64,000 nucleotides of DNA from positions 124,001 to 188,000 of the forward strand of contig CAJNOJ010000183.1 in assembly GCA_905250025.1 (NCBI GenBank), given 5' to 3'. Every line of letters starts with the position of its first letter. Positions within the stretch are counted from its first letter, which is position 1. Origin of the DNA: Adineta ricciae. Taxonomy: Eukaryota; Rotifera; Eurotatoria; Adinetida; Adinetidae. The notes under the pieces are model-generated. The model had not been told where the DNA came from, did no database searches, and worked only from the letters and a program-made list of their open reading frames with translations. The translations under genes and the position numbers were made by a program. Positions 4,226-26,759 of the stretch are shown piece after piece.

Positions 4226-4234
4226 TATTTAAAA
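4226..4234 (+). promoter_or_regulatory. TATA-like box of ART1, haplotype A
   Basis: TATTTAAAA lies 45 bp before the ATG at 4280. The same motif is kept at 8944-8952 before the complete gene, so the longer reading frame starting at 4223 is unlikely to be translated. Confidence 0.45.
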
Positions 4235-4279
4235 GATCTCGTGTGCTCGTCATTCCCATTGCTAAAAATCAAGCCCGAC

Positions 4280-7348: not shown

Positions 7349-7834
7349 GGTTCTTATTACGTGAAATCTATTAAAATGAAATTCTCAAAATAGTGTTGTT
7401 TTTCATCCGATAAGAAAAAAAAACACAGTCGTACTGGTAATTCAATACGCTCTGTTTTATTAGTAGATGTTGACTTAGAGAGAACGCACATTTTTGCTTG
7501 AATAAAGCACTGCAGTGGAGAATTTTTCTTATCGGATTACAGCCGAATGTCTTCTCATCGCGGAATACTATTGTACGATGATTATTTTTCATAGCAGTAA
7601 GGGAAAAATCCCAATAACAATCTAATGCACTTCATACTTGAACAGATACAATGCTCATGTTCGCGTTGGGCTCGTTTTCAAGTCGAGTAAAAAGTGAAAT
7701 AGGACATTTGTCAAACGTGAAATTTTATTTAAACATCATATTTTACTTCATAGAATGTTTGATGTAACATAGATGTGGTCACATTACAAATATACCTCGA
7801 AATTATTGTATATAAAAAAAAAGTGATTGTTTGA

Positions 7835-8536
7835 TTAAAAATCATTTGCACTCGAGTGTTCTTTTTCAACATGTTTTGCAAGTTCGTCATTGCTGCCAAA
7901 ACAGTCGCCACACTCATCACAAGAAACTTCCAATTCTTTGACGATTTGGTAATTCGCATTGGTTTTCTTGTGCGTTGCAAGATTTTTTTTCACATCCCAA
8001 TAAACTTTCATATTCGGATCTTGTATATGAATGCTTCGTCTATGTTCCAGAAGATCATCATGTAAATCAAACGATTCCTTACAGTGATTACATCCATATT
8101 TGACAAACACTTCGTCATCGTTACAACTTGGTATATGTTGTTTAACTAAGCCTATAATTTCGTTCAGGGTGATCTCCGGCGGATTGCTGACTGTCTGAAT
8201 GAATAGCCGACTTTTCCCATGGTATTTTTGCTTAGTGAACAGCTCATCAGCATGGCAAGAATTCGAACCAATAATAATAATTATCGATGCGAAATGATCG
8301 CATTCCTTTTTGAGGGTATCGATAATATTTTGACCATTTGAAGACGGCAGCACAGATACATTAGATATACCTGGGTATGTTATTATTCTTCCCTGAATTG
8401 ACGCTGGATCAGCACAAAAGATGTAGAATTTACAGTTGCCGGGAACTTTTGATAACCCTCTGATATTGCTGAGAATGATTCCCATACGATCATCGTCACC
8501 ATCAAATAGAACAAGTTGATTTGCGTTCGAAGCCAT
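7835..8536 (-). CDS. PIN-like domain plus two C2H2 zinc fingers, haplotype B
   Basis: This is the intact second version of 3110-3811, also 233 residues from the ATG at 8536. The acidic F-D-G-D-D-D cluster near the N-terminus and both C2H2 fingers are conserved. Changes lie mainly in loops (for example the region after FYIFCADP). Conservation of the putative acidic residues and all eight zinc ligands in both copies argues for selection. A nuclease role is only inferred from the PIN-like pattern. It is head to head with ART1 (ATG at 8998), with ~460 bp between them. Confidence 0.6.
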   Translation of the reverse strand: MASNANQLVLFDGDDDRMGIILSNIRGLSKVPGNCKFYIFCADPASIQGRIITYPGISNVSVLPSSNGQNIIDTLKKECDHFASIIIIIGSNSCHADELFTKQKYHGKSRLFIQTVSNPPEITLNEIIGLVKQHIPSCNDDEVFVKYGCNHCKESFDLHDDLLEHRRSIHIQDPNMKVYWDVKKNLATHKKTNANYQIVKELEVSCDECGDCFGSNDELAKHVEKEHSSANDF

Positions 8537-8943
8537 AAAACGTGAATATGTTGGATTCACTGCGATTTTCTAACACAGAATTCTGACAAGAAACTAGCTT
8601 TTTATATGATAAAATTTCCCAGTTGAAAGAGAATTTCGAACTATATGTAAAATTTGTTTCTTCCCAGTGTATGATAACATTGCTAAAAACTCAGAGGAAT
8701 CAGATAATTGTTCTTTCACCTCCTTAACAAATGACGATGTTGTATTCTCAATAGAAAATTTCACAACTGCATCGTAACATTAGTTTCTCAAAGCAAACAA
8801 CGTCACTGCGTATTTTTCAGACAGATTTATGTTCTTTTACTACCGAGTTTATTTTTTGTTCCTATTTGTTTTTCTTTGTAACAGACGGCAATAAAAAAAT
8901 GGCAGAAACATTTTTCGCGGAATAAACTTGCCTCGCTGCTTTG

Positions 8944-8952
8944 TATTTAAAA
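8944..8952 (+). promoter_or_regulatory. TATA-like box of ART1, haplotype B
   Basis: TATTTAAAA is 45 bp upstream of the ATG at 8998, identical in sequence and spacing to the copy at 4226-4234. Confidence 0.45.
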
Positions 8953-8997
8953 GATCTCGTGCACTCGTCATTCCCATTGCTAAAAATCAAGCCCGAC

Positions 8998-10962
8998 ATG
9001 AGTCGTAAGCCGGTGAAAAGCAACGTGACGAAATCTAAAGTTGCAGCAAAGCCGCCACCACCAGCGTCCTCGGCGGCTGAGACACAAGTCAAAGTGGAGA
9101 AATTCAAACATGATTGTGCAACGGAAAACTTCAATTTAGTCTGGCTTGATGAAAACTACGACGAGATGAATTCGAACTGCTCCGTCTTAACTGCCAAATT
9201 ACCGACCATCATCAGAAAACTGTATATTTTCAACGATGTTGATGAATGTATCAAACTTATCAACAGTATTCGAGATCTGGATGTATATCTGATATTATCG
9301 AATCCGACTGAAGATGCTCTTACCCATACTCACCAATTAGGCCGAGTGAAAGTGGTATTTATTTTCGATGATCGCAATTCGTCGAATCCATCATGGAAAG
9401 ATCAATGGAAAAAAGTACAAGGAATATACAAGGATATCAATACACTCTGCCAGTTCATCAAGGAAACGGCAAAGTATTACGACGAGGAATACAAAGAATT
9501 TAGTTGCATCGCGCTGCAAGATCTAGACAAACGTGATGTCGATGAACTCGGTCAATCGTTTATGTATACTCAATTACTCAAGGAAATTCTTCTCGAAATG
9601 AAATATGGTACGACATGTAATAAAGAATTAGCTGAATATTGTCGCAAAAAGAAAAATGTTCTTAACAATGATTTAAAACGCTTGGACGAATTTGAACAAA
9701 ATTACAAGCAAGAAAAAGCAGTATGGTGGTATACTACGGAGAGTTGTATCTATGGTTTGGTTAACAAAGTGTTACGCGAACAAAAATTCGATTTCATCAT
9801 CAAGTTTGGCTTTTTTATTAAAGATCTACACTTGCAGATAGAACAACTACATGAAGACCAAGCATCGAAGAAAAAGGATAATCCAACCCTTTATCGTGGT
9901 ATCAGTATGACGGAGAAACAATTCAAAGAGCTACACAAAAGCGAGAAGGGATTGTTAGCATTCAATAGTTTCGTATCAACTAGCCGGGATCCAACAATAG
10001 CGCAAGGGTTTATTCAACGCTCTTTGGGAGCAAATCCTCGTCTAATCGGAATCCTGTTCATCATTAATGTTGATCCATCGATTTCATCGACCAAATATGC
10101 TGATATTGAAGAGATAACTGACGTGCATGGAGAATCAGAAACTCTATTTTCTCTGGATGCGGTCTTTCGTATTGGAAGTATAACTCAAGTTCAAGATGAA
10201 CCACAAGTATGGACCGTAGAACTCGATCTAAGCGATAATCGCGACAAAAAACTCAATACTCTCATGGATCGTATGCGACTTGAAATCGATGGATTAACGG
10301 AGTCGTACAAATTAGGCAGTTTAATGATGAAAGTTGACCAATATGATGTAGCAGAAGAAATTTATAATAAATTAAATGACGAAACCAATGATGAACGAGA
10401 AAAAGCGAATATTCAACATCAATTGGGATACATAAAATATAAACAAGGAAAGTCAAAGGAAGCTCTCGATTGGTACCAACGAGTATTGGACGTCTATGTA
10501 AAGATTCTCGGAAATGAGCATAAAAATGTCGCTGCAGTTTACAATAACATCGGCTTAGTTTATGACAGTCTCAATGAGTATTCAAAAGCCTTGACTTATT
10601 ATCAAAAGGCTCAACAAATCTATGAAAAAACTTCAGCGAATGATCCCGTTCTAGCGACATGTTACAATAACATAGCGTCAATCTATGCTACCATAGGAGA
10701 CCATCAATCAGCACTAAATTATTACCAGAAATCATCTGAAATCAGTCAGAAATTGCAGGCTACCAACCATCCTGACTATGCTACTTTGGAAAATAATATT
10801 GGTCTGATTTATTTGACACGTGGAGACTTTAAAGAAGCTTTCAAATACTTTCATAATGCGGTTAAAATTGGTACGAAATCGTTGCCTGTTGACCATGCAG
10901 ATTTGACAACTTATCAAACTAATCTCAAAATGGCAACCGAGAAACTGGACAAGTATAAATAA
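8998..10962 (+). CDS. ART1: receiver-like domain + arginine-type ADP-ribosyltransferase + TPR
   Basis: A 654-residue single-exon protein without signal peptide or membrane segment, so probably cytosolic. Order: Lys/Pro-rich leader (1-~45); an alpha/beta domain starting at LVWLDENY with the strand VYLILS (~50-170), shared with ART2 and ART3; a helical segment (~185-290); then an ART core with Arg in TLYRG (R300), the STS motif (327-329) and the ExE motif ESE (E379, E381). Those three features define R-S-E ADP-ribosyltransferases that move ADP-ribose from NAD+ to protein, commonly arginine when ExE is present. About five kinesin-light-chain-like TPRs follow (~425-654) and probably bind partners. 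Start chosen at the ATG 45 bp after a TATA-like box; a longer frame upstream lacks ATG. A poly(A) signal AATAAA lies at ~11071. The substrate is not predictable. The gene converges on the GTPase gene at 11110. Confidence 0.85.
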   Translation: MSRKPVKSNVTKSKVAAKPPPPASSAAETQVKVEKFKHDCATENFNLVWLDENYDEMNSNCSVLTAKLPTIIRKLYIFNDVDECIKLINSIRDLDVYLILSNPTEDALTHTHQLGRVKVVFIFDDRNSSNPSWKDQWKKVQGIYKDINTLCQFIKETAKYYDEEYKEFSCIALQDLDKRDVDELGQSFMYTQLLKEILLEMKYGTTCNKELAEYCRKKKNVLNNDLKRLDEFEQNYKQEKAVWWYTTESCIYGLVNKVLREQKFDFIIKFGFFIKDLHLQIEQLHEDQASKKKDNPTLYRGISMTEKQFKELHKSEKGLLAFNSFVSTSRDPTIAQGFIQRSLGANPRLIGILFIINVDPSISSTKYADIEEITDVHGESETLFSLDAVFRIGSITQVQDEPQVWTVELDLSDNRDKKLNTLMDRMRLEIDGLTESYKLGSLMMKVDQYDVAEEIYNKLNDETNDEREKANIQHQLGYIKYKQGKSKEALDWYQRVLDVYVKILGNEHKNVAAVYNNIGLVYDSLNEYSKALTYYQKAQQIYEKTSANDPVLATCYNNIASIYATIGDHQSALNYYQKSSEISQKLQATNHPDYATLENNIGLIYLTRGDFKEAFKYFHNAVKIGTKSLPVDHADLTTYQTNLKMATEKLDKYK

Positions 10963-11109
10963 CGATACTAGTGGTTGGTTCAAAAACTTTACTATAATCT
11001 CAACTGAATACAATGCACAAACGCGTTTTCTTATCGAGTATTTTAGAAAAATACAATGTAGTAACTCTTGAATAAAATAGTAGTGTGTATATAATGTCGA
11101 ATAGTAAAA

Positions 11110-12234
11110 TTAATATCTGGGATCGTTTGTTGTATCATCATTCATATGTGCTCGTAATTCTTGCTCGCGTAGAATTGATCTGCGATACTTTTCAGTAAGC
11201 CTTCGTATCTCGTGTTCATCTTTCAATCCCTGCTTTTGAAATTGTTTGACAATATATTCTTGCTCTTCCAACGATTGCCTTAAATTCAGTACTTCATCTT
11301 CTTTTTGTTTCTTCAAATCATTGGCGGATCTTTCTGGACTGATACGCATCTGATTGATTGGTAGAGGATCTCTCACGCTTAAGAACTTCTCGATCAGCTG
11401 TGTACGATAGTCAACCGCTGCAAAATATTGATTGTACACGCATTCGCTACCATTGTTGTAATCATCTCGATTTATTGAACCGGAAAACAGAATTCCGAGT
11501 TTAAAGAATGGAGCGATTTTATGAAAAGCAGCATCTTCTACCAATTCTTTTCGCAATTTCTCACGTTGTTCTTCGTTTTTCGATTCACAATGTGTTATAA
11601 TTAAGCAGGAATTTTTCGATGTCTCTTCACCAAAATACTCTATTAATGTTTCGATTGACTGTATATCTTCCCTGTTGATACCAACTGTCACAGAGACACA
11701 AAAGCAAATAGCGTGAAATTTTGTAATTTCCATCGTGGCGCACAGTTTGATTGCGTTTAAAATGGTGTCGTTGTCGCGGATGTCAACTTCTTTGCTACCG
11801 CGTTCGAACAAACCCGGTGTATCGATAATATTAATAACAGTGTCCTTGTCTTTTAAATTAAATGCTTGGAATTGTGGATCTCTTGTTCCGGATTTCAACG
11901 TCAATTCGCTCGGAACGCTCGTCGGATCAACTAACAGTGCTTTGATCGTTGATTTGCCGGTGCGTGTACGTCCAATGATTAAAATATTCACATGCTCAAC
12001 TTTTTTCATTTTATACAGACCATTTTCTTTAAAATCCTGGACAATTTCCTGGGTAATTTTGTTTCGCTTTGACTCCAAATTATCCGTACGATATCGTTCG
12101 CGCAGTGTGCTCTGAAATGAACAGAATATCAGTTGGTACCCATTCAATATTAGTTCTGAATAAGCATGTTGGCAGCTTCTTTTTCTACGTCAAAGAATAT
12201 ACATGATATTTACCGAACTCTTTTTGTCAGACAT
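11110..12234 (-). CDS. AIG1/GIMAP-like GTPase with C-terminal coiled coil, intact haplotype
   Basis: Exon 1 (12234-12214) encodes MSDKKSS. A 102-nt intron (12213-12112, GTAAAT...TTTCAG) and exon 2 (12111-11110) complete 340 residues. The P-loop GRTRTGKST (54-62) and the G3 motif DTPG (104-107) followed by LFERG identify an AIG1-type P-loop GTPase. The later strand LIITHCES is the likely G4 region. The tail (~265-340) is Glu/Gln/Arg-rich and coiled-coil-like. AIG1/GIMAP proteins bind GTP and oligomerise on membranes in vertebrate lymphocytes and in plant defence; a role here is inferred only from family. The tiny first exon was chosen because it restores an ATG directly in frame; the longer frame in the track has no ATG. 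The gene is nested between ART1 and ART2 and convergent with ART1. Confidence 0.75.
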
Positions 12235-12566
12235 AATAGAACACATTGATTTTGACCAAATGAGTGTACTGGTTCGATATAGTGTTTACTTCGATTGCTT
12301 ACATGTAAAATCTTCCAGTTCTCTGTAATGCGTTGTCGTTTTATAGCTGCTGCTCAGTTCATATAATTTTTTCCAAGAAGCCCGTAAATCGAGAACATAC
12401 GCTTTTTTTCAAATGTATGACGTCAGAAATAAAGAATGAGATTTTATGTTGGAATAAAAATACTGACAAGGAAGAGAATGCAGAGTAGATGGCGGGTAGA
12501 ATGTAGGTTTTCTCCTAGCTACAACAACGTTTACACCCGCAAAAAATACATTTTATTATTCGTCAT

Positions 12567-13311
12567 TTAATTCAACAAAGAAAGACAAAGTGTATGATTA
12601 ATGTTTCCTGACGACTCATCGCTTTGGTCGATGTTGAATCTTTGTATTCGATGATTTCCCCAATCGGCTACGTAAAGATTTCCATCTACATCGAATGCTA
12701 AACCTTGAGGATTCTGTAATTGATTCGCGTCATTTCCTTCACCATATCCGCCAGCAATAATAGTTCCTTGTGCCATTCCTTTGCAGAAGCGCATCACACG
12801 ATGATTAGCATTATCAGCCAAGTAGATTGTTCCTAATGCATCAACTATTAATCCATCAGGATGCGATAGTTGTGTCAGTTTATCACCTTGACCTCGACCA
12901 CCAGCAACAAGAACTCCTTCTTTGGCGTTCTTTTCCCACATCATGACACGATGATTTCCATTATCGGATACGTATACAGATTGATCTTCATCGACGAAAA
13001 CAAATGTTGGCCAGCTGAGCTGATCGAGATCGTTTCCTGGTCCATTGCCGCCGGCTACGATCGTTCCAATTGTATCACCTGCACGATATCGTCGAACTTC
13101 ATGTAGCTCGCTATTAGAAACATAGACAAATCCTTGACAATCCATCGTTAGACGCTGACATGCTAATTCCGATAGTATCGTCTCTCCGCTTTTACTATTT
13201 TGACGAGACCATCGAACGATTTGTTCATTTTTCGAATCACTAACAATGACATTGTCATTATGAACGATCACATCTGTTGGTCCATTTAACTGATCAGATC
13301 GACGTCCTGGT
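12567..13311 (-). CDS. ART2 C-terminal NHL propeller, haplotype A fragment
   Basis: This is the C-terminal ~247 residues of the ART2-NHL protein, corresponding to 15659-16403. It is cut by the n at 13312. It holds about five NHL-type blades with recurring G-x-G-N-D-x-x-Q-L-x-x-P and V-A/S-D-x-x-N-H-R-V patterns and ends at the same stop context. The body of the gene is represented only by the second copy. Confidence 0.75.
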
Positions 13312-13312
13312 N
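13312..13312. other. Contig joint 2 (single n)
   Basis: Right of the n the sequence restarts inside the ART1 gene (equivalent to 10151). The left end (cgacgtcctggt) recurs at ~16403. So 10151-13311 and 13313-16403 are two haplotypes of one block; the 70-bp length difference is mostly the deletion in the GTPase gene. Confidence 0.75.
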
Positions 13313-14124
13313 CTCTGGATGCGGTCTTTCGCATTGGAAGTATAACTCAAGTTCAAGATGAACCACAAGTATGGACCGTAGAACTCGATCTAAGCGATAA
13401 TCGCGACAAAAAACTCAATACTCTCATGGATCGTATGCGACTTGAAATCGATGGATTAACGGAGTCGTACAAATTAGGCAGTTTAATGATGAAAGTTGGT
13501 CAATATGATGTAGCAGAAGAAATTTATAATAAATTAAATGACGAAACCAATGATGAACGAGAAAAAGCGAATATTCAACATCAACTGGGATACATAAAAT
13601 ATAAACAAGGAAAGTCAAAGGAAGCTCTCGATTGGTACCAACGAGTATTGGGCGTCTATGTAAAGATTCTCGGAAAGGAGCATAAAAATGTCGCTGCAGT
13701 TTACAATAACATCGGCTTAGCTTATGACAGTCTCAATGAGCGTTCAAAAGCCTTGGACTATTATCAAAAGGCTAGACAAATCTATGAAAAAACTTCAGCG
13801 AATGATCCCGTTCTAGCGACATGTTACAATAACATAGCGTCAATCTATGCTGCCGAAGGAGACCATCAACCAGCACTAAATTATTACCAGAAATCATCTG
13901 AAATCAGTCAGAAATTGCAGGCCACCGACCATCCTGACTATGCTACTTTGGAAAATAATATTGGTCTAATTTATTTGACAAGTGGGGACTTTAAAGAAGC
14001 TTTCAAATACTTTCATAATGCGGTTAAAATTGGCACGAAATCTTTGCCGGTTGACCATGCAGATTTGACAACTTATCAGGATAATCTCAAAATGGCAACT
14101 GAGAAACTGGACAAGTATAAATAA
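13313..14124 (+). CDS. ART1 C-terminal part, second haplotype fragment
   Basis: The frame opens directly at the joint within the last strand of the ART domain (SLDAVFRIG) and runs to the normal stop. It covers the linker and all the TPRs of ART1. The differences from 10151-10962 are a handful of substitutions and no frameshift. The catalytic Arg, STS and ExE lie upstream of the joint and are absent here. Read it as an allele of ART1, not as a separate TPR gene. Confidence 0.75.
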
Positions 14125-14271
14125 CGATACTAGTGGTTGGTTTAAAAACTTTACTATAATCTCAACTAAATACAATGGGCAAACGTGTTTTCTTATTGAG
14201 TATTTTAGAAAAATACAATGTAGTAACTCTTGAATAAAATAGTAGTGTGTATATAATGTCGAATAGTAAAA

Positions 14272-15325
14272 TTAAAATCTCGGATCGTTTGTTGTATTAT
14301 CACTCATATGTGCTCGTAATTCTTGCTCGCGTAGAATAGCTCTGCGATACTTTTCAGTAAGCCTTCGTATCTCGTGTTCATCTTCCGACTCCTGCTTTTG
14401 AAATTGTTTGACAATATATTCTTGCTCTTCCAGCGCTTGCCTTAAATTCAGTACTTCATCTTCTTTTTGTTTCTTCAAATCATTGGCGGATCTTTCTGGA
14501 CTGATACGCATCTGATTGATTGGTAGAGGATCTCTCACGCTTAAGAACTTCTCGATCAGCTGTGTACGATAGTCAACCGCTGCAAAATATTGATTGTACA
14601 CGCATTCGATACCATTGTTGTAATCATCTCGATTTATAGAACCGGAAAACAGAATTCCGAGTTTAAAGAATGGAGCGATTTTGTGAAAAGCAGCGTCTTC
14701 AACCAATTCTTTTCGCAATTTCTCACGTTGTTCTTTGTTTTTCGATTGACTGTATATCTTCCCTGTTAATGCCAACTGTCACAGAGACACAAAAGCAAAT
14801 AGCATGAAATTTTGTAATTTCCATCGTGGCGCATAGTTTGATTGCGTTTAAAATTGTGTTGTTGTCGCGGATGTCAACTTCTTTGCTACCGCGTTCGAAC
14901 AAACCCCGTGTTTCGATAATATTAATAACAGTGTTCTTGTCTTTTAAATAAAATGCTTGGAATTGTGGATCTCTTGTTCCGAATTTCAACGTCAATCCGT
15001 TCGGAACGCTCGTCGGATCAACTAGCAGTGCTTTGATCGTTGATTTGCCGGAGTGCATACGTCCAATGATTAAAATATTCACATGCTCAACTTTTTTCAT
15101 TTTATACTGACCATTTTCTTCAAAATCCTGGACAATTTCCTGGGTAATTTTGTTTCGCTTTGACTCCAAATTATCAGTACGAAATCGTTCGGGCAGTGTG
15201 CTCTGAAATGAACAGAATATCAGTTGGTACCCATTCAATATTAGTTCAAAATAAGCATGTTGGCAGGTTCTTTTTCTACGTCAAAGAATATGCATGATAC
15301 TTACTGAACTCTTTTTGTCAGACAT
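14272..15325 (-). pseudogene. AIG1-like GTPase, second haplotype, broken by a 71-bp deletion
   Basis: This is the counterpart of 11110-12234. Exon 1 (15325-15305) and a GTAAGT donor are present and the P-loop survives as GRMHSGKST. Near 14746 the segment equivalent to 11578-11648 is missing. The lost 71 bp is bounded in the intact copy by the direct repeat TTTCGATT. The loss shifts frame, removes the strand and loop expected to carry the G4 specificity motif, and splits the gene into two frames (15238-14723 and 14775-14272). The G3 motif has also changed from DTPG to ETRG. The C-terminal coiled coil stays open. No full-length GTPase is expected from this allele. Confidence 0.8.
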
Positions 15326-15658
15326 AATAGAACACATTGATTTTGACCAAATGAGTGTACTGGTTCGATGTAATATTTACTTCGATTGCTTACGTGTAAA
15401 ATCTTCCAGTTCTGTGTAATGCGTTGTCGTTTTATAGCTGCTGCTCACTTCGTACAATTTTTCCCAAGAAGCGCGTAAATGGAGAACATACGCTTTTTTA
15501 CAAATGCATGGCGCCAGAAATAAAGAATGAGATTTTATGTTGGAATAAAAAATACTGACAAGGAAGAGAATGCAGAGTAGATGGCGGATAGGATGTAGGT
15601 TTTCTCCTAGCTACAACAACGTTTACACCCGCAAAAAATACATTTTATTATTCGTCAT

Positions 15659-18519
15659 TTAATTCAACAAAGAAAGACAAAGTGTATGATTGATGTTTCC
15701 TGACGACTCATCGCTTTGGTCGATATTGAATCTTTGTATTCGATGATTTCCCCAATCGGCTACGTAAAGATTTCCATCTACATCGAATGCTAAACCTTGA
15801 GGATTCTGTAATTGATTCGCGTCATTTCCTTCACCATATCCGCCAGCAATAATAGTTCCTTGTGCCATTCCTTTGTAGAAGCGCATCACACGATGATTAG
15901 CATTATCAGCCAAGTAGATTGTTCCTAATGCATCAACTATTAATCCATCAGGATGCGATAGTAGGGTCAGTTTATCACCTTGACCTCGACCACCAGCAAC
16001 AAGAACTCCTTCTTTGGCATTCTTTTCCCACATCATGACACGATGATTTCCATTATCGGATACGTATACAGATTGATCTTCATCGACGAAAACAAATGTT
16101 GGCCAGCTGAGCTGATCGAGATCGTTTCCCGGTCCATTGCCACCGGCTACGATCGTTCCAATTGTATCACCTGCACGATATCGTCGAACTTCATGTAGCT
16201 CGCTGTTAGACACATAGATAAATCCTTGACAATCCATCGTTAGACGTTGACATGCTAATTCCGATAGTATCGTCTCTCCGCTTTTACTATTTTGACGAGA
16301 CCATCGAACGATTTGTTCATTTTTCGAATCACTAACAATGACATTGTCATTATGAACGATCACATCTGTTGGTCCATTTAACTGATCAGATCGACGTCCT
16401 GGTCCACGCCCACCCGCAATTAATCGACCTCTCGTTGCACCATCTGTCCATTCTACGATACGATCATTNTGACATGCTAATTCCGATAGTATCGTCTCTC
16501 CGCTTTTACTATTTTGACGAGACCATCGAACGATTTGTTCATTTTTCGAATCACTAACAATGACATTGTCATTATGAACGATCACATCTGTTGGTCCATT
16601 TAACTGATCAGATCGACGTCCTGGTCCACGCCCACCCGCAATTAATCGACCTCTCGTTGCACCATCTGTCCATTCTACGATACGATCATTCAAACAGTCA
16701 GCAATTATGATAGTTCGATCTTTATCGATGAAAAGACCGATTGGACCATTGAGTTGATTGAGTTCACTACCGTTTCCGTGACCACCTGCTACTGTGATGC
16801 CTTCTTGTACCCACTTTGTCTTCGCAGGAATATTTGGGATTGTATTTGTTGTATTTGCTTTACTATTTTTATTTGATTGAGCTTGTTCTTTGATCATGAG
16901 CGCCTTTTCCTCCCATTCCATACTTTTGTCATATTGTTGACTCTGTGCGGTAACTTCAGCTAGTTCATCGTAAAGAATAGCAAGAAACGGGTGATTTGGT
17001 GGAAAGTCATGAATGAAACGTACAAAATACTTTTCTGCTAAATCAAATTTACCCATTCTCGCCAATATCTTTCCGAATATTCGAAGATTTGTTACTCCTA
17101 CTCCATTTTGACTTTTCCTATTGAGCAGAACTTGTTTCAGCGCATTAGCATCATCGCTACATAGATCCATTCGAATAATCCATACATTGTCTTCGTCAAG
17201 ATCAACACTAGTCAAATGAAAGATCGAACCAAACATAAATAATACTTCATCTTCCGTGGGAAAAGAACTGTGCGCGCTGATCTCTGCAAATGGCTTCGTA
17301 GTAACCATCTGTGGGTCAGCAATAATTTCGAATAAAACTCGTTTCATAGTTGCTGATGACGAACTGCTCAGAAACGACAGAGCTGTTGATCGATTTGTAC
17401 TCGTCGAAAAGAAGGAATTGATTGAAATAAACTCTCCTGACAATCGTTTAAGAATTTCCAATTCTTCGTCGGACATACATTGACTTCGATACACATTCAA
17501 CACGCGTGTTGTCTGATATTCCTGAAGTTGATGATAAATATCGCCAATATACGAACGAAAGAGATAGATCATATGAATATTTTGAGTACGCAATGCAGCA
17601 TTGAGAGTCTTGTAGAAGAATGTTTCACGTGTGTACCACCACAGGGCTTTTCCCNNNNNNNNNNNNNNNNNNNNNNNNNNNNNNNNNNNNNNNNNNNNNA
17701 TTGACTTCGATACACATTCAACACGCGTGTTGTCTGATATTCCTGAAGTTGATGATAAATATCGCCAATATACGAACGAAAGAGATAGATCATATGAATA
17801 TTTTGAGTACGCAATGCAGCATTGAGAGTCTTGTAGAAGAATGTTTCACGTGTGTACCACCACAGGGCTTTTCCCGACGAATAAGATTGTCGAAATTCAC
17901 GAAGATTGTTCAGTTCTTCTTTGTTACCTAAATACTCGTTGATATAATACGAGATCAATTCGTTTTTATCAGCTTCACTAGGTTTCATTCGTAATAGACA
18001 ATCAATAAGAACTTGGAAGAAAACAAATTGACCATTCACTCCTGTTGTTGCTTTGTTCGAACCAGGACTTGTAGTGAACATATTGATTGATAATGGTTCA
18101 TCGATTTGTTGCTGAATTCGATAATCATCCTGTATTCGAGATATGAGCTCATTAGGTTCAATAATAACTGCTTTAATCTTAGGATATTTCGAAGTCCACC
18201 GTCGATTTCCTTGTTTGTGTGTGCAGTAAATATAGATCGACGAAATTTGTCGAAGTAAATGAATGGCTGGTATGATGATCTTCCCTTGATAGTCGTTGAC
18301 AACAATGACTAGTCGGTGATCTTTCGATTGCTGTTCAATATATTCCTGACAGTCTTTTATATCATTGAAGTTAATGAGGTGATTGATAATAGCGCGTAAT
18401 CTTTCTTGAACGACTGCATTTTTTATATTGTCATCGAGCCAAATGAGACTAACTTGCTCTAGATTCATATTGTTCTCGTCGGTGTCAAGTTCATTATTTG
18501 ATGCGATACTTTGCGCCAT
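15659..18519 (-). CDS. ART2: receiver-like domain + ADP-ribosyltransferase + TPR + NHL propeller
   Basis: Reading from the ATG at 18519 (MAQSIASNN), the order is: receiver-like domain with LIWLDDN (~25-150), helical segment, ART core with Arg in NVYRSQ (R271), STS (298-300) and ExE as EDE (E349, E351), a short TPR-like stretch (~415-480), then about six NHL blades to the stop at 15659. Two assembly duplications interrupt the gene: 176 bp around the N run (17479-17654 = 17700-17875) and 221 bp around the n at 16469. Dropping one copy of each leaves 2418 nt, an exact multiple of three, giving 805 residues, so the gene is probably intact. An upstream ATG at 18588 is only 9 bp from TATAAA (18598-18603) and so lies before the likely transcription start; 18519 is preferred. 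Cytosolic; NHL propellers usually bind protein or RNA. Confidence 0.8.
16248..16690. repeat. Apparently exact 221-bp duplication around contig joint 3 (n at 16469)
   Basis: Positions 16248-16468 and 16470-16690 appear identical. With the n the insert is 222 nt, so it stays in frame and falsely adds 74 codons of NHL repeat to ART2. Lack of divergence points to an unmerged overlap of the same haplotype, not a biological repeat. Confidence 0.8.
17479..17875. repeat. Apparently exact 176-bp duplication around a 45-N gap (17655-17699)
   Basis: Positions 17479-17654 and 17700-17875 appear identical and lie in the ART2 coding region, just around the catalytic Arg. The two halves of the gene join in frame if one copy is dropped (minus strand 17700 to 17478). 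This is an assembly overlap left unmerged. Confidence 0.85.
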
Positions 18520-18597
18520 CGCTATCTGAAATTCTATAGAAATCTGTGCGTGTTTTTTCGAAATTATGATCGATCGAACTGCCACCATTACAGAAGA

Positions 18598-18603
18598 TTT
18601 ATA
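18598..18603 (-). promoter_or_regulatory. TATA box of ART2
   Basis: TATAAA on the minus strand lies 9 bp before the first ATG (18588) and 78 bp before the second (18519). With a start site ~25-30 bp downstream, the mRNA would begin after the first ATG, supporting 18519 as start. It is conserved in the other haplotype at ~19732-19737. Confidence 0.5.
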
Positions 18604-19169
18604 CTTGAAGTCTGCTTAGCAACTTTTTCCTTATCCAGTTTTTTCATTGCCCATCACTGAAAAATGGCATCGACTCGAAATAATTATTCATCGACACGAT
18701 AGGAAGATATCGCTATAACTAGTGACTTCGTTTTTATCTTAAAGCTGCCTTGTCAATAGTTTACGTTTTTTATTTACTGTTCTGTTTGACTTCGAAAAGT
18801 ATACTCGAAAGAAAAAAAAGAATGTTTTTGTCTTTCGCAATGTGAGTCGACATAATGTTTCCATTTGATCGTTCATTGTTGTTCGTGAGCATTCAAGTAC
18901 TCATATGCATTCGAGTAGATATGAGTGAAGGTGTATAATAGTCTTCTTCGAACTGGAATGACCATTTTCTCTCTTGTAAATACAATTCGAACTATAAAGA
19001 ATAAGATGCGTCATTGACACTTTTATTGCTTCAAAGCATATTTCTCCTTTTTTCCAACTAAAACTTGATTTGCGAGTATTTTTCGCACTGCATGGTGATA
19101 AAGTTGTTGTCGGAAGACATTTCTTTCAAAGTAGTTTATCAGATCTAACGGATTCGACAGCATATAAAA

Positions 19170-19288
19170 ATGTGCACCAACTGTAAGTAAATTTGTGGAA
19201 CCATAAAATTGAGTAGTGAGCTGATTTTCATCCTAGGTTTCACTCGTAATGGGACACGTGAATTAGATTTCATAGTCGTATGGCTCGA
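19170..19288 (+). CDS. ART3 exon 1 and start of exon 2, haplotype fragment
   Basis: ATG at 19170 opens a 13-nt exon (to 19182), followed by a 54-nt intron (19183-19236, GTAAGT...CCTAG) and the first bases of exon 2 up to the n at 19289. It matches 20301-20419. In this copy the ART2 start (18519) and the ART3 start lie head to head ~650 bp apart, which is the true intergenic distance once the joint is removed. Confidence 0.7.
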
Positions 19289-19289
19289 N
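19289..19289. other. Contig joint 4 (single n)
   Basis: Right of the n the sequence restarts inside ART2 (equivalent to 18156, minus-strand gene). The left end recurs at ~20419. So 18156-19288 and 19290-20419 are two versions of the ART2/ART3 divergent promoter region. Confidence 0.75.
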
Positions 19290-19653
19290 GTTCAATAATA
19301 ACTGCTTTAATCTTAGGATATTTCGAAGTCCACCGTCGATTTCCTTGTTTGTGTGTGCAGTAAATATAGATCGACGAAATTTGTCGAAGTAAATGAATGG
19401 CTGGTATGATAATCTTCCCTTGATAGTCGTTGACAACAATGACTAGTCGGTGATCTTTCGATTGCTGTTCAATATATTCCTGACAGTCTTTTATATCATT
19501 AAAGTTGATGAGGTGATTGATAATAGCACGTAATCTTTCTTGAACGACTGCATTTTTTATATTGTCATCGAGCCAAATGAGACTAACTTGCTCTAGATTC
19601 ATGTTGTTCTCGTTGGTGTCAAGTTCATTATTTGATGCGATACTTTGCGCCAT
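19290..19653 (-). CDS. ART2 N-terminal receiver-like domain, second haplotype fragment
   Basis: The ATG at 19653 (MAQSIASNN) opens the same N-terminal domain as at 18519, with LIWLDDN and the strand LVIVVND. It is cut by the n after ~121 codons. A few synonymous changes and one or two residue changes separate it from the other copy. It is an allele fragment, not a stand-alone protein. Confidence 0.75.
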
Positions 19654-20300
19654 CGTTATCTGAAATTCTATAGAAATCAGTGCGTGTTTTTTCGAAATTA
19701 TGATCGATCGAACTGCCACCATTACAGAAGATTTATACTTGAAGTCTGCTTAGCAACTTTTTCCTTGTCCAGTTTTTTCATTGTCCATCACTGAAAAATG
19801 GCATCGACTCGAAATAATTATTCATCGACACGATAAGAAGATATCGCTATAACTAGTGACTTCGTTTTTATCTGAAAGCTGTCTTGTCAATAGTTCACGT
19901 TTTTTATTTACTGTTCTGTTTGACTTCGAAAAGTACTCGAAAGAAAAAAAAGAGTGTTTTTGTCTTTCGCAATGTGAGCTGACATAATGTTCCATTTGAT
20001 CGTTCATTGTTGTTCGTGAGCATTCAAGTACTCATATGCATTCGAGTAGATATGAGTGAAGGTGTATAATAGTCTTCTTCGAACTGGAATGTCCATTTTC
20101 TCTCTTGTAATTATAATTCGAACTATAAAGAATAAGATGCGTCATTGACACTTTTATCGCTTCGAAGCATATTTCTCCTTTTTACCAACTAAAACTTTAT
20201 TTGCGAGTATTTTTCGCACTGCATGGTGATAAAGTTGTTGTCGGAAGACATTTCTTTCAAAGTAGTTTATCAGATCTAACGGATTCGACAGCATATAAAA

Positions 20301-22119
20301 ATGTGCACCAACTGTAAGTAAATTTGTGGAACCATAAAATTGAGTAGTGAGCTGATTTTCATCCTAGGTTTCACTCGTAATGGGACACGTGAATTAGATT
20401 TCATAGTCGTATGGCTCGATGCAGCAGTGGGTGACAGTGCACTTAAATTGGTACAAAAAAAAGTTCAACTAATAATGAAGCATTTTAAGAATATGGATAC
20501 AGAAGAAGACTGTGAAGAATATATTCGTTCTGCTCAACTTGGTCAAACTATTGTTGTGGTTACCACTGAAGATTCTGCTAAAATTATCGTACCCGCCATT
20601 CATCACCGATGTCAAGTGGGAGCTGTATTTGTCTACAATGGTACAAGCACGACGTGTGACCAATGGAAATCCATATATAAAAAGGTATAAAATAGCGAAT
20701 GTAAATATTAGAGACGAATGGATCTGTTTACATTTATATTCTCCGACGATCTCTGTTCCTTACTTTCATTGTAGGTCAAATTCCTCGAGCTTGATGCAGT
20801 TGAAAAGCATGTCAAAGCATTTCGGTGTCGCTGGCTCCGCAATACATCTCATGATTATATTCCAATGAGTATTTTCAACATGCAAAATGTCAGCGCAGAA
20901 CGTTCATCTACAGATTTAAACGGAAGGTTTCTCTTTGTGCAATTGCTGCTGGATATTCTTCTGGACTTAGATCCGCCGTTCAGCAATAAAGACAAGTTTA
21001 TTCGGAAATGTGCCAGATTGTATGAAAGAAATGCAAAGGAATTGGAAGTCCTGGCAGACTTCAACACAAATTATTGTCCAACTGCAGTTTTAGAGTGGTA
21101 TACAAGAGAATGTTTCATTTTTAAACTTCTCAACAAAGCACTTCGACGACAAAATATTTCACTTCTTCTTCTCTTTTCCTTCTTCATTCAAGATATGCAA
21201 AATCAACTGAAAAATTTACAGTGTCAATCATCAGTAAATGTATATCGCGGTCAAGTGATTTTAAAGACCGAATTAGCTCATTTGAAAAACTCATGCGGCA
21301 AATATATTGCTATGAATTCGTTTTTGTCAACGAGTCTTAGTAGAGACGTAGCTCTTCAGTTCATGGGTGGTGCTACCGGAAGCCCGACTGAAGAAGATTT
21401 AGAATACGTTTTGTTTGATATACATGCGACTTCTAATGACAAGACTGGAGGATCATCATTTGTCAACATTGCTGATACTGGTTATTTTGATGCAGAAGAA
21501 GAAGTCTTATTCAGTTTAAATTCAGTGTTCCAACTCGATAGTGTCCAAACTGATCCAACACATCCAGATTTAACCATTATAAAAATGACGTTCTGTGACA
21601 ACAACAAGCATGAGTTACACGCCGTTTTTAATGCGATGAAAAAACAGTTCAAACAAGATTGCAATGATATAAGAGGAGACGATCGCGATACAACCCCTAT
21701 AACTCTCGGTGTTGTCCTACTCAATATGGGACACATGAAACTAGCGAAGACGGTCTTCACTCAGGTGCTACGTAAACTGAGAAGATCACCAGACACAGTA
21801 GATGTTGGCAGATGCTGCCATTATATTGGTGATGTATACCGACAAAAAAATTGCTTTTCAAAAAGTATCCAGTGGTACAAAAAAGCATTGAGAATATACG
21901 AAAGTACCGCACGAGACAACCATTCATTAGTCGCAAAAACATACTTATCACTTGGTCATGCCTATAGCAAGACGACAGATTGGAAATTTCCAGTATGGTA
22001 CCGAACTGATCTTGCCAGTAAGTCGAAGCATAAACAGATTTATCATACATAAAGATTATTCTCATTTCCGTAGACTGGTGGTCGACAAATGTCAGCAGAC
22101 GATGGCGAAAGAGTCTACG
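20301..22119 (+). CDS. ART3: receiver-like domain + ADP-ribosyltransferase + TPR + zinc ribbon, haplotype A (exons 1-3, start of 4)
   Basis: Exons: 20301-20313 (MCTN), 20368-20684, 20775-22017, then 22074 onward to the joint at 22120. Introns are 54, 90 and 56 nt with GT-AG ends and consistent phases. With exon 4 taken from the other haplotype (23373-24040) the total is 2241 nt, i.e. 746 residues. Order: receiver-like domain with VVWLDAAV (~15-125); helical segment; ART core with Arg in NVYRGQ (R268), STS (295-297) and ExE as EEE (E351, E353); then TPRs. Without splicing, the gene would look like two short frames with false stops. No signal peptide, so probably cytosolic. It is divergent from ART2 across a shared ~650-bp promoter region. 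Confidence 0.8.
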
Positions 22120-22120
22120 N
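22120..22120. other. Contig joint 5 (single n)
   Basis: Right of the n the sequence restarts inside ART3 exon 3 (equivalent to 20822) and the left end (gtctacg / gcctacg) recurs at 23418. Both blocks are 1298 bp long and differ by scattered substitutions, as alleles would. Confidence 0.75.
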
Positions 22121-24040
22121 TCGGTGTCGCTGGCTCCGCAATACATCTCATGATTATATTCCAATGAGTATTTTCAACATGCAAAATGTCAGCGCAGAAC
22201 GTTCATCTACAGATTTAAACGGAAGGTTTCTCTTTGTGCAACTGCTGCTGGATATTCTTTTGAGCTTAGATCCGCCGTTCAGTAATAAAGAGAAGTTTAT
22301 TCGGAAATGTGCCAAATTGTATGAAAGAAATGCAACGGAATTGAAAGTCCTGGCAGACTTCAATGCAGATTATCGTCCAGCTGTAGTTTTAGAGTGGTAT
22401 ACAAGAGAATGTTTCATTTTTAAACTTCTCAACAAAGCACTCCGACGACAAAATATTTCACTTCTTCTTCTCTTTTCCTTCTTCATTCAAGATATGCAAA
22501 CTCAACTGAAAAAGTTACAATGTCAATCATCAGTCGACGTATATCGCGGTCAAGTGATTTTAAAGACCGAATTAGCTCATTTGAAAAACTCATGCGGCAA
22601 ATACATTGCTATGAATTCGTTTTTGTCAACGAGTCTTAGTAGAGACGTAGCTCTTCAGTTCATGAGTGGTGCTATCGGAAGCCCGATTGAAGAAGGTTTA
22701 GAATATGTTTTGTTTGATATACATGCGACTCCTAATGACAAGACTGGATGTTCATCATTTGCCAACGTTGCTGGTACTAGTTTTTCGGATGCAGAAGAAG
22801 AAGTCTTATTCAGTTTAAATTCAGTGTTCCGACTCGATAGTGTCCAAACTGATCCAACAAATCCAGATTTAACCATTGTAAAAATGACCTTCTGTGACAA
22901 CAACGAGCATGAGTTACACGCCGTTCTTAATGCGATGAAAAAACAGTTCAAACAAGATTGCAACGACATAAGAGGAGACGATCACGATACAACCCCCATA
23001 ACTCTCGGTGCTGTCCTACTCAATATGGGACAAATGAAACTAGCGAAGACGATCTTCACTCAGGTGCTACGTAAACGGAGAAGATCATCAGACACAGTAG
23101 ATGTTGGCAGATGCTGCCATTATATTGGTGATGTATACCGACAAAAAAATTGCTTTTCAAAAAGTATCCAGTGGTACAAAAAAGCATTGAAAATATGCGA
23201 AAGTACCGCACGAGACAACCATTCATTAGTCGCAAAAACATACTTATCACTTGGTCATGCCTATAGCAAGACGACAGATTGGAAATTTCCAGTATGGTAC
23301 CGAACTGATCTTGCCAGTAAGTTGAAGCACAAACAGATTTATCGTACACGAAGATTATTCTCATTTCCGTAGATTGGTGGTCGACAAATGTCAGCAGACG
23401 ATGGCGAAAGAGCCTACGTCCATATGAAAAAGCATTGGCTCTGTACGAAAAACTTTATGGTCAAGATCATGCGTGTTCTGAAATAGCCGACTGCTATCTA
23501 GGCCTAGGTTCGGTGCATCTTCACATTAACAACTTCATACCCGCTATTGACAATTATCAAAAGGCTTCGATTATTCAAACAAAAATATTACCTGAATTCC
23601 ATCCTGCATTGGCTTTTTGTCAAAATAAATTAGCGTACAGTTTCTTTCGAATTAATGATATGAATTCAGCTAAAATTCATTTCGAGAAAGCACTGGAAGT
23701 AGGATTAAAATCCCTGCAGCCTGCTCATCCTTTGATCATCGAGCTTTATTACATATTAGGCATTATTCACAGAAATACTAATACACGGCAAGCCGAGGAG
23801 TATTTTCAACAGCAACTGCTACTTCTTGAACACTATCGAACAGCGAATCAATCTACAGCTGATACGGTCGAGATTGTTGGTTATAAAATACATTATATTT
23901 GTCCGCAATGTAATCTCCCTGTCTGGGTATACACATCATGCCGCATTCTCAAAGGAAAAACCTGTCCAAGGTGCATGCGCCAGTTCTCATGTTTGCGGTC
24001 AGCGAGAGTGCATGTGATGCTTGCTCAGCCGGATGAATAA
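22121..24040 (+). CDS. ART3 haplotype B: ART core, TPRs and C-terminal zinc ribbon
   Basis: The copy opens at the joint in exon 3 and runs to 23316, then a 56-nt intron (23317-23372, GTAAGT...CCGTAG) and exon 4 (23373-24040). Catalytic features are kept: VYRGQ, STS and EEE. Exon 4 adds three or more TPR-like helices and ends in a CxxC...CxxC zinc ribbon (CPQC...CPRC) close to the C-terminus, which is not found in ART1 or ART2. Splicing is required, since the unspliced exon 3 frame stops at ~23372. A poly(A) signal AATAAA lies at 24140-24145. The zinc ribbon could bind nucleic acid or protein; this is not resolved by sequence. Confidence 0.8.
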
Positions 24041-24341
24041 ATCGAACTCATAGCAAGCAAGAAAGTATAAGATACTCTCAACGTTTATCCCACATCCACA
24101 ACCACCCTCATCCACCCTAAAAGTGTTGTAAATTATCGCAATAAAGTGAATGTCTTTCTCGTTCATGTGTAAAAAAAACATGTAATGTGCGGAATATGTT
24201 TGGTTTCGATTGATTGGAGGAGATGTTATTCATAACATGACGAAAGAGAAAACTTCTATGTTCGTCCGTATTTTGTTTACAATTATATCGATTTCGTCAG
24301 AAGAACGAAAACGAAGCGGACGAATATCGTAAGATATCGTA

Positions 24342-24348
24342 TAAATAT
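24342..24348 (+). promoter_or_regulatory. TATA box of TIKI-like gene, haplotype A
   Basis: TATAAAT lies ~33 bp before the ATG at 24381. The same box is at 25506-25512 before the complete copy (ATG 25547). Confidence 0.5.
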
Positions 24349-24380
24349 GTGAAAATCAGTAGTAAATCATCATTTCAACC

Positions 24381-24722: not shown

Positions 24723-25209
24723 TTATCAAAAGGCTTCAATTATTCAAACAAAAATATTACCTGAATTCCATCCTGCATTGGCTTTTTGTCAAAATAAATT
24801 AGCGTACAGTTTCTTTCGAATTAATGATATGAATTCAGCTAAAATTCATTTCGAGAAAGCACTGGAAGTAGGGTTAAAATCCCTACAGCCTGCTCATCCT
24901 TTGATCATCGAGCTTTATTACATATTAGGCCTTATTCACAGAAATACTAATACACGACAAGCTGAGGAGTACTTTCAACAGCAACTAATACTTCTTGAAC
25001 ACTATCGGACAGCGAATCAATCTACAGCTGATACAGTCGAGATTGTTGATTATAAAATACATTATATTTGTCCGCAATGTAATCTCCCTGTCTGGGTATA
25101 CACATCATGCCGCATTCTCAAAGGAAAACCCTGCCCAAGATGCATGCGACAATTCTCCTGTTTGCGATCAGCGAGAGTGCATGTGATGCTTGCTCAGCCG
25201 GATGAATAA
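24723..25209 (+). CDS. ART3 C-terminal TPR and zinc ribbon, second haplotype fragment
   Basis: The frame opens at the joint (YQKASIIQ) and ends at the usual stop. It holds the last TPR-like helices and the CPQC...CPRC zinc ribbon, with only a few residue changes from 23554-24040. It is an allele of ART3 exon 4. Confidence 0.75.
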
Positions 25210-25546
25210 TTCGAACTCATAGCGAGCAAGAACGTAGATACTCTCAACTTTTATCCTACATCCATATCCACCCTCACTCACCCCTAAAAATGTTGCAGAT
25301 TATCGCAATAAAGTGAATGTCTTTCTCGTTCATGTGTAAAAAACATCTAATGTGCGGAATATGTTTGGTTTCGATTGATTGGAGGAGATGTTATTCATAA
25401 CATGACGAAAGAGAACAACTTTGATGTTCGTCCGTATTTTGTTTACAATTATATCGATTTCGTCAGAAGAACGAAAACGAAGCGGACGAATATCGTAAGA
25501 TATCGTATAAATATGTAAAAATCAGTAGTAAATCATCATTTCGACC

Positions 25547-26759
25547 ATGCAAGTTTCTCTCGTATTCATCTTTGCTTTAATTCATCTTTGCCAATCGAAT
25601 ATCTTATATCGAATTGATAGCAAACGAAAAGATGTGCACTTGAATTCGGCATACATCATCGGTGCTGTCGCTTCACACGAATTTCGTAACATAAGACCAA
25701 GTACTTTGCCTGAAAGCGAAGAAGTCTGGGTCGAAACAGATGTTGTTCAATCTGATTTTCACAAACTTAGCGGACAATGTGCTCAACAATCGATACAATG
25801 GAAATCAAAAGAAATCCTCCGATCTTCATCATCGGACTTCCTTGAAAAATTTCGAGAAAACATCGTGTCACGACCATCAGAAGGTATGTGTATAAGGAAA
25901 ATGCGAATACAGAATGTCATTCTTTCGCTTTTGTTCATTGTAGTCGATGCTGCATGGCAGAATTTCTTACACGATTCTTTTTCAATAAATGAAAGCTTTT
26001 CCAAGTGGAATAATCCAATGCTTCAAGATTATGTGTATTATGGATATGTTTTTGACGCTTATCGTCGAAATCAATCCGTGAAATCTCTTCTACCACTTCC
26101 TTCAACTTGTCCTGAGTTCTCAAAGTCTCTTAAGTTACGAGATCAACTGTTGAAATCCGAGTTTCTCATGTTGGCAGATGATGTTCTTCGAATGTATACA
26201 TGCGGTCTGATCTCCGAAGACTTATTTCGAAGCAGTTTCAATGAACAGGAAATAAAATCTATCAATAATCGCAACGAACAAATGGCACAACGTATTCATC
26301 AATTATTAACACAAAAGCCAAACACAAAATATTTCTTTCTTGTCAATGCAGGTTAACTATAGACATAAAGAGATTTCGGTACCGGACTGTTGATATTCTC
26401 ATTTTTGTTTAGTCAACTTTTTGGGTAATCAAAGTGTTGTGAAATTACTTGAAGATCAAGGATATTCTTTGGAACGAGTCTATTATCAACCAAATCCATT
26501 AGCAGAGTAGGGAGAATGCTTTTTCAGGATAGTATTATCGTCTGGTTTTAGAAAATGTGCAGACAAGGAATTTAGAGATAAATATCAACATCCAGATAAG
26601 GACATTACGAATGCTGTGACGATATACTTGAAGAATTTCAATATTGATCCATTATTTTACTTTTATTATTACTTTACTTCACTCTGTATGGTATCAACCG
26701 ATTCGATTAAATCGGATTGTCCATTCAATGATTTAAATTGGATGAAAATAGCTGCATGA
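25547..26759 (+). CDS. Divergent TIKI/TraB-family protein, probably secreted or membrane-anchored
   Basis: Four exons: 25547-25883, 25944-26351, 26413-26506 and 26552-26759, with introns of 60, 61 and 45 nt; the phases agree throughout. A signal peptide (MQVSLVFIF...CQS) is followed by YIIGAVASHEF, then NRNEQMAQRI and KYFFLVNA-VNFLGNQSVVKLL near the C-terminus. This layout matches TIKI metalloproteases (TRABD2), which cleave the N-terminus of Wnt proteins at the cell surface. In the family the C-terminal motif reads GAGH before FLG; here the His is Asn and the Gly is changed, and the N-terminal GxxH is also irregular. The protein may therefore be inactive or act differently. The last exon is the least certain: without splicing, translation would stop at 26510. 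A TATA box is at 25506. Confidence 0.6.

What the first reader, a model, noticed from the sequence alone, without database searches (positions are those of the whole stretch)
8998..24040. ART array with a shared receiver-like N-domain and swapped C-termini, next to an AIG1-like GTPase
Three genes (ART1, ART2, ART3) carry the same N-terminal WLD domain and a complete R / STS / ExE ADP-ribosyltransferase core, but end differently: TPR only, TPR + NHL propeller, TPR + zinc ribbon. None has a signal peptide, unlike vertebrate ecto-ARTs. The fixed input domain, fixed NAD-using effector and variable repeat recogniser resemble the layout of intracellular immune receptors, and a GIMAP-like GTPase lies inside the array. 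The layout is seen in sequence; the immune or stress role is inference.
Basis: partly seen in the sequence, partly recalled or inferred. Interest (0 to 1): 0.85.

Follow-up and report, generated by a model that had tools for sequence, protein, structure and literature searches.

The report
Huge rotifer family of intracellular ADP-ribosyltransferases
Three neighbouring genes in what looks like a bdelloid rotifer genome belong to a very large family of proteins with an undescribed front domain, an enzyme core of the kind that tags other proteins using NAD, and changeable repeat tails; their job is unknown, but they look like many-copy cellular sensors.

Summary
The core observation holds. ART1, ART2 and ART3 share one N-terminal domain (HMM built without them: 8e-40, 6e-25, 8e-14; best of 12,420 shuffled frames 0.0026) and an R/STS/ExE ADP-ribosyltransferase core over Pfam's cut-off; tails are TPR, short TPR-like + NHL, TPR + CxxC ribbon. 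The array is partly an assembly artefact: seven of ten N gaps sit between two 95-100% identical copies, so the second GTPase, second ART1 end and extra NHL and ART3 pieces are most simply unmerged haplotypes. That leaves three diverged ART genes and one AIG1 GTPase.
The N-domain is matched at 227 loci of this 130 Mb genome (haplotype copies included, searches capped). The genome looks like a bdelloid near, not identical with, Adineta vaga. In two recent clades all domains are under purifying selection; TPR tails change faster and vary in number. The N-domain has no Pfam or PDB sequence relative found, a predicted (beta-alpha)5 order, and no receiver-type phosphoacceptor Asp. The GTPase link is weak. 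Best reading: cytosolic arginine-type mono-ADP-ribosyltransferases aimed by variable repeats. Immune or desiccation roles remain inference.

The parts
8998..10962 (+). ART1: N-domain + ART + TPR repeats, single open frame, 654 aa
9121..9513 (+). N-domain of ART1, predicted (beta-alpha)5 order
9529..10272 (+). ART core of ART1: YRG, FVSTS, ESE
10405..10880 (+). TPR repeats of ART1
   Evidence: TPR_12, 158 bits
11110..12189 (-). AIG1/GIMAP-like GTPase (neighbour; link to the ART family weak)
   Evidence: (61.3 bits, cut-off 27)
15659..18615 (-). ART2: N-domain + ART + short TPR-like stretch + NHL repeats; crosses N joins at 16469 and 17655-17699 with duplicated ends
   Evidence: layout also in L062
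18082..18474 (-). N-domain of ART2
20370..24037 (+). ART3: N-domain exon (20370-20690), ART + TPR exon (20775 on), probable intron near 23317-23370, then TPR and CxxC ribbon; read in two haplotype pieces joined at N 22120; exon limits by eye
23897..23986 (+). two CxxC pairs (CPQC...CPRC), possible zinc ribbon; also in the haplotype copy ending at 25209
   Evidence: no Pfam family over cut-off
4833..9548 (.). likely haplotype copy of 83-4831 across a single N
13313..16468 (.). likely haplotype copy of 10151-13311: second end of ART1, broken second AIG1 copy, second NHL part
19290..20419 (.). likely haplotype copy of 18156-19288 (start of ART2)
22121..23418 (.). likely haplotype copy of 20822-22119 (ART core of ART3)
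24723..25887 (.). likely haplotype copy of 23554-24721 (end of ART3 and start of next gene)

Best explanation
ART1, ART2 and ART3 are members of an expanded family of cytosolic arginine-type mono-ADP-ribosyltransferases (here called N-ART) in a bdelloid rotifer close to Adineta. Shown in sequence: a shared undescribed N-domain, an ART core with the R-S-ExE set, C-terminal repeats that differ in kind and number, hundreds of matching loci, purifying selection in the two clades measured. Inferred: the C-terminal TPR or NHL repeats bind a partner or foreign protein and bring it to, or release, the ART core, which then moves ADP-ribose from NAD to arginines of a bound or nearby protein; the N-domain is a regulatory or assembly module. 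A minority of copies with a lost R, S or E would act as non-catalytic partners or decoys.
For: N-domain and ART in all three genes. The family's ART profile hits the arginine ART Vis (E 1.2e-9) and SpvB (6.4e-4) by sequence, and Vis comes first by fold (2.2e-8). Of 48 members R is kept in 46, first S of STS in 41, the two E in 42 and 41; TPR in 45 of 48. N-domain matched at 227 loci. In-frame stops in 1 of 150 rows and 6 of 150. dN/dS in two clades: N-domain 0.39 and 0.26, ART 0.32 and 0.27, TPR 0.64 and 0.43; TPR core motifs 3 to 12 among six members of the first clade (the seventh, L037, is cut by its locus end). In 110 TPR units sites 9 and 12 are the most variable of helix A on a near-constant frame (that these face the ligand groove is recalled). 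NHL layout in an unbroken frame elsewhere.
Against: No activity, ligand, target or expression was tested. ART scores are modest: at E 0.01 PF01129 matched 31 and PF03496 35 of 48 members. Some members lost a catalytic residue (L015, L016, L021, L026, L027, L031, L051, L053 by the alignment; L064 by eye). In one search about 42 of 131 rows carry a stop (by eye, mostly one TAG; an intron as in ART3 would explain many, not checked). The N-domain model is of moderate confidence (block means 66-79 over residues 41-110, 36-55 before that; mean 62 overall) and the N-domain-only model failed (41.9). TPR dN/dS stays below 1, and alignments of genes with different repeat numbers are less sure. Variable TPR sites also lie outside the groove (18, 22, 29, 31).
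Confidence: 0.6

Rival explanations
1. Cytosolic immune receptors: the variable repeats detect molecules of fungi, bacteria or viruses and the ART core modifies host or microbial proteins, a lineage-specific counterpart of NLR or plant R-gene repertoires. (A narrower form of the best explanation.)
For: Number of loci, recent clades with changing repeat number and faster tails, variable TPR sites 9 and 12, mixture of apparently catalytic and non-catalytic copies. A published suggestion that expanded A. vaga families, TPR and NHL among them, may serve defence among other things (PMC3846280, passages).
Against: TPR dN/dS below 1; no NTPase switch domain among the matches shown for ART1; no challenge data. 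In the bdelloid fungal-infection paper the words ribosyl, TPR, tetratricopeptide and NHL do not occur in the held main text (PMC11258130, term search), but its authors say that they focused on horizontally acquired genes.
Confidence: 0.3
2. Stress enzymes for desiccation and rehydration: the ARTs re-tune protein activity or NAD use during drying and recovery.
For: In A. vaga the GO process ADP-ribosylation (and microtubule-based process) is enriched among genes over-expressed both on entering desiccation and after rehydration (PMC10809525, section 7 read). GO ids there came from InterProScan (passage); that this GO term is fed by the ART family rather than PARP is recalled, not checked.
Against: The authors discuss PARPs (17 and 9 over-expressed genes, passage), which may explain the term. 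A stress role does not need hundreds of copies with different tails.
Confidence: 0.25
3. Mostly non-catalytic TPR/NHL adaptors in which the ART fold is a relic used for binding.
For: Several members lost R, S or E.
Against: R 46, S 41, E 42 and 41 of 48 kept, with 3 of the 48 cut before the end of the core (L038, L047, L049); dN/dS of the core 0.27-0.32 in two clades.
Confidence: 0.12
4. The array is an assembly artefact and the gene number is inflated by unmerged haplotypes.
For: 7 of 10 N gaps in the window lie between near-identical copies; single Ns also occur in 8 fetched loci from elsewhere in the genome (L005, L018, L026, L036, L046, L047, L049, L057); near pairs on one contig elsewhere, such as C180 and C202.
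Against: True for local copies, not for the family: ART2 and ART3 are 21-30% identical to ART1, the three lie in two deep clades, and only 30 of the 1,128 pairs among 48 members exceed 88% identity in the ART core.
Confidence: 0.1

Closest known systems
Vertebrate ecto-ARTs (ARTC, PF01129)
   Same: ART fold, R-S-ExE set of arginine-specific enzymes; Pfam cut-off met.
   Different: No signal-like hydrophobic start seen; an N-domain in front and TPR/NHL behind. Vertebrate features are recalled.
Bacterial arginine ARTs of the exoenzyme type (Vis; SpvB domain)
   Same: Nearest solved relatives by sequence and among the nearest by fold; YRG, STS, ExE.
   Different: Part of large multi-domain proteins of an animal; no relative found in plasmids, phages, viral contigs or prokaryote genomes with the queries used.
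Expanded TPR, NHL and other repeat families of Adineta vaga (PMC3846280)
   Same: Same kind of animal, same repeat types, reported as expanded (passages).
   Different: The word ribosyl does not occur in its main text, so ART core and N-domain are not linked to those expansions there.
NLR / plant R proteins
   Same: Works-like resemblance: fixed core, variable repeats, many copies.
   Different: No NACHT/NB-ARC among the matches shown for ART1; the output would be ADP-ribosylation; recognition not shown.
GIMAP/AIG1 GTPases (PF04548)
   Same: The gene at 11110-12189 is one.
   Different: Association with the ART family is weak across the genome.

Membership tests
ADP-ribosyltransferase superfamily, R-S-E type | Match to ART profile over the curated cut-off | tested here: met
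   PF01129: ART1 26.7, ART2 22.5, ART3 25.2 against 22.3 bits
ADP-ribosyltransferase superfamily, R-S-E type | Catalytic R, STS and ExE | tested here: met
   Present in all three; R 46, S 41, E 42 and 41 of 48 family members
ADP-ribosyltransferase superfamily, R-S-E type | NAD splitting and arginine modification | not testable with these tools
   Needs protein assay
Vertebrate-type ecto-ART | Signal peptide / surface anchoring | tested here: not met
   By hydropathy only: a strong stretch near the N-terminus in 1 of 48, and that one lies within the N-domain (L026)
Response-regulator receiver domain | Pfam match | tested here: not met
   35 N-domains against Pfam at E up to 10: the 25 of 36 families listed hold no receiver, best 0.0032
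Response-regulator receiver domain | Phosphoacceptor Asp at the end of strand 3 | tested here: not met
   Column 60 is S in 31 of 35 and D in none; column 61 is D in 3 of 35
Response-regulator receiver domain | (beta-alpha)5 fold | tested here: inconclusive
   Order of strands and helices fits, but moderate confidence and no fold match of the N-domain alone
NLR-type immune receptor | NACHT or NB-ARC NTPase | tested here: not met
   None among the Pfam matches shown for ART1 (25 of 26); for the other 47 members only the 25 commonest of 95 families were listed
NLR-type immune receptor | Activation by pathogen molecules | not testable with these tools
   Needs experiment
AIG1/GIMAP GTPase (gene at 11110-12189) | PF04548 over cut-off with GxxxxGKS and DTPG | tested here: met
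   61.3 against 27 bits; motifs by eye

The most novel reading that the evidence does not exclude
Bdelloid rotifers carry a cytosolic receptor repertoire of hundreds of genes whose output is ADP-ribosylation: an undescribed Rossmannoid switch domain, an ART effector and diversifying TPR/NHL recognisers, an animal system parallel to NLRs that uses NAD chemistry.
Probability: 0.28. Interest if true: 0.9.

Novelty: new variant of a known kind. Interest (0 to 1): 0.62.

Why it matters
A very large gene family in this animal appears to be an uncharacterised intracellular mono-ADP-ribosyltransferase with a domain for which Pfam gave no match. If the enzymes are active, ADP-ribosylation would be a major signalling output in bdelloids, and transcriptome reports that read the GO term ADP-ribosylation as PARP activity may need a second look. 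If the repeats recognise foreign molecules, this would be a new way in which asexual animals keep a receptor repertoire.

Tried and rejected
Rejected: local copies as paralogous expansion (most simply haplotypes across N joins). Rejected as strong: the GIMAP link. Rejected: canonical receiver. No significant Pfam or PDB sequence relative for the N-domain. PADLOC gave TPR models for 45 of 48 members and five other models in one or two members each, among them a type II methyltransferase model on ART1's N-domain region at 7.9e-5, not pursued.

Led nowhere: a search with a rotifer spliced-leader sequence recalled from memory, 0 hits, no conclusion; the N-domain-only model (pLDDT 41.9), not searched; pdb_via not available; searches for relatives in prokaryote genomes, viral contigs, plasmids and phages, none found, but the contig scans used only 2 to 6 short patterns and the tblastn used ART1 alone. 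Paper searches: searches found no paper; some searches listed 10, 7, 13, 20, 8, 10, 3 and 8 papers, in some cases of hundreds or thousands; no title or abstract start listed describes this family. Subscription papers on bdelloids are mostly not held.

Full report
Observation. ART1 is one open frame, 8998-10962 (+), 654 aa. ART2 lies on the minus strand, 15659-18615, in pieces; ART3 on the plus strand, about 20322-24040, with introns placed by eye. Pfam finds ART over its cut-off in all three (ART2 by 0.2 bits), TPR in ART1 and ART3, NHL in ART2, and AIG1 in the gene at 11110-12189. An HMM of the N-domain from 33 relatives outside the window finds ART1, ART2 and ART3 at 8.4e-40, 6.2e-25 and 7.7e-14; 20 shuffles of the 621 window frames (12,420) gave two weak hits, best 0.0026. 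The ART HMM (22 relatives) finds all three and no shuffled frame.

Artefact. A self-comparison of the window shows ten N gaps. At seven (six single Ns and the 45-N gap) one copy of a stretch ends at the gap and the other starts after it, 94.8-100% identical. At 33852 and 42938 only one copy touches the gap; at 41440 only a local repeat. Unmerged haplotypes or contig overlaps joined end to end are the simplest reading; I could not check reads. Hence the second AIG1 copy (14272-15280, itself broken), the second ART1 end (13313-14124), the second NHL part and the doubled ART3 core are probably not extra genes. Single Ns occur in other fetched loci too. That leaves three ART genes and one GTPase. 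ART2 and ART3 are 21-30% identical to ART1. A tree of 50 ART cores puts ART1 with the C180 genes (99/95) in a TPR-type clade and ART2 and ART3 in a second deep clade (100/100) with the NHL genes L061 and L062 and with L064; three of the 48 family frames (L038, L047, L049) were left out because their core is cut. ART3 is a long branch and the program warns about its place.

Whose genome. 130.5 Mb in 1033 contigs. A glutamate receptor from it (L069) has AvGluR1 as nearest solved relative (4.8e-77 against 3.8e-34 for the next), and the best genome match to part of that chain is 88% identical. That AvGluR1 is from Adineta vaga is recalled. I infer a bdelloid near, but not identical with, A. vaga. 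No other rotifer genome could be searched (one search states that it has no relatives here).

The family. The ART1 N-domain query gave 150 scored matches of 502 candidates, all at E 1e-10 or better. Of the first 50 by rank, three are ART1 and its haplotype pieces; the other 47 were read with ART1 (48 proteins). The N-domain lies within the first 190 residues of each frame counted from its stop (start position). At E 0.01 Pfam gives TPR in 45, ADPrib_exo_Tox in 35 and ART in 31 of 48. R is kept in 46, the first S of STS in 41, the two E of ExE in 42 and 41 of 48. An ART2-based query gave 131 matches, 114 scored of 1029 candidates, and a second N-domain query 150 of 688 candidates. Loci with a match to the N-domain itself number 227 over. 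together give 387 ART or N-domain loci, 242 of them hit or 50 (some by the ART core only) and 145 by the Pfam ART profile alone; none of the 150 hits has a hit within 1.8 kb, so the high-scoring classical ARTs are largely a separate set (one search scored 150 of 553 candidates). These counts include haplotype copies, which inflate them, and are capped at the best candidates, which lowers them. Loci with a neighbour within 10 kb are 20.9% against 5.8% expected, inflated by haplotype copies.

Stops. Rows with an in-frame stop: 1 of 150, 6 of 150, about 42 of 131 by eye (mostly one TAG). ART3 has an intron between N-domain and ART, so introns may explain many of the last; I did not check each.

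Independent support for layouts. L062 (C346) has one unbroken 822-aa frame with N-domain, ART (PF03496 39.6 bits) and NHL, without N. L064 has an N-domain and, by eye, a degenerate ART, followed by a separate frame with a classical ART of 30.2 bits; whether that is one gene is not known.

Selection. In a seven-member clade mean dN/dS is 0.39 (N-domain), 0.32 (ART), 0.64 (TPR); in an eight-member clade 0.26, 0.27, 0.43. TPR core motifs range from 3 to 12 in six members of the first clade; L037 shows 1 but is cut by its locus end. In 110 TPR units of the 48 proteins the frame is nearly constant, and sites 9 and 12 (2.65 and 3.17 bits) are the most variable of helix A; sites 18, 22, 29, 31 and 33 are variable too. 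This fits a changing binding surface but does not prove it.

Structure. A model of ART1 residues 41-434 from window sequences only has mean pLDDT 62.2. The N-domain has block means of 66-79 over model residues 41-110 and 36-55 before that, and shows strand-helix five times; the ART part is mostly 65-88 with dips near 50. Foldseek's first hits are Vis (2.2e-8), then C3-type, VahC and SpvB ARTs; TM-scores are low (0.22-0.57 by target length in the 50 rows shown) and rmsd often high, so only the fold class is used. The rows shown hold no separate match of the N-domain. By sequence the ART profile hits Vis at 1.2e-9, the N-domain profile nothing significant (best 0.11). Column 60, at the end of strand 3, is Ser in 31 of 35 and never Asp, so it is not a canonical receiver.

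GTPase. 68 AIG1 matches exist; 8 lie within 10 kb of an ART/N-domain locus against 3.9 expected, on five contigs including the window's. I do not regard it as part of the system.

Literature. Expansions of TPR, NHL and other repeat families in A. vaga, with defence among the suggested roles, are in PMC3846280 (passages). GO ADP-ribosylation is enriched among genes over-expressed in desiccation and rehydration (PMC10809525, section 7; passages) and among genes lowered in spaceflight, where the authors speak of PARPs (PMC12220480, passages). PMC3482391, PMC5916493 and PMC11258130 were searched for terms only. No listed paper described this family (capped listings).

Mechanism. Most likely the repeats choose the partner, the ART core marks arginines with ADP-ribose from NAD, and the N-domain regulates or assembles the protein. 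The recognition step, the target, the role of the N-domain and the biological trigger are all inference. Between defence and stress I lean slightly to defence because of tail diversification and number, with no direct test.

Noticed in passing
window 14272-15280: The second haplotype copy of the AIG1 GTPase has ETRG where the first has DTPG and its frame is broken, so the two haplotypes may differ in having an intact GTPase.
   Followed up: no
window 5951-8569 (-): Neighbouring minus-strand frames; one ends in C2H2 zinc fingers (25 bits, just under cut-off), the other (478 aa) has no Pfam match at E 0.01.
   Followed up: partly
window 25547-26353 (+): Predicted secreted protein (hydrophobic start by eye) with a weak TraB/GumN match (17.6 bits, under cut-off); its first part is doubled across the N at 24722.
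   Followed up: partly
window 27541-32494 and 33853-38805: A 5-kb stretch occurs twice at 93%; the second copy starts at the single N at 33852, the first ends 1.4 kb before it.
   Followed up: no
G000 C202, C256, C124, C286 and others: 48 matches, some partial, to part of the rotifer glutamate receptor AvGluR1, many in single frames of about 900 aa: another expanded family.
   Followed up: no
L064 1411-3799: N-domain protein with a degenerate ART core directly followed by a frame with a classical ART; possible pseudoenzyme-enzyme pair or fusion.
   Followed up: partly
L061 3232-3771 and L062 3230-3727 (+): A small cysteine-rich protein with a signal-like start and one transmembrane-like stretch (by eye) lies head to head with both N-ART-NHL genes.
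   Followed up: no
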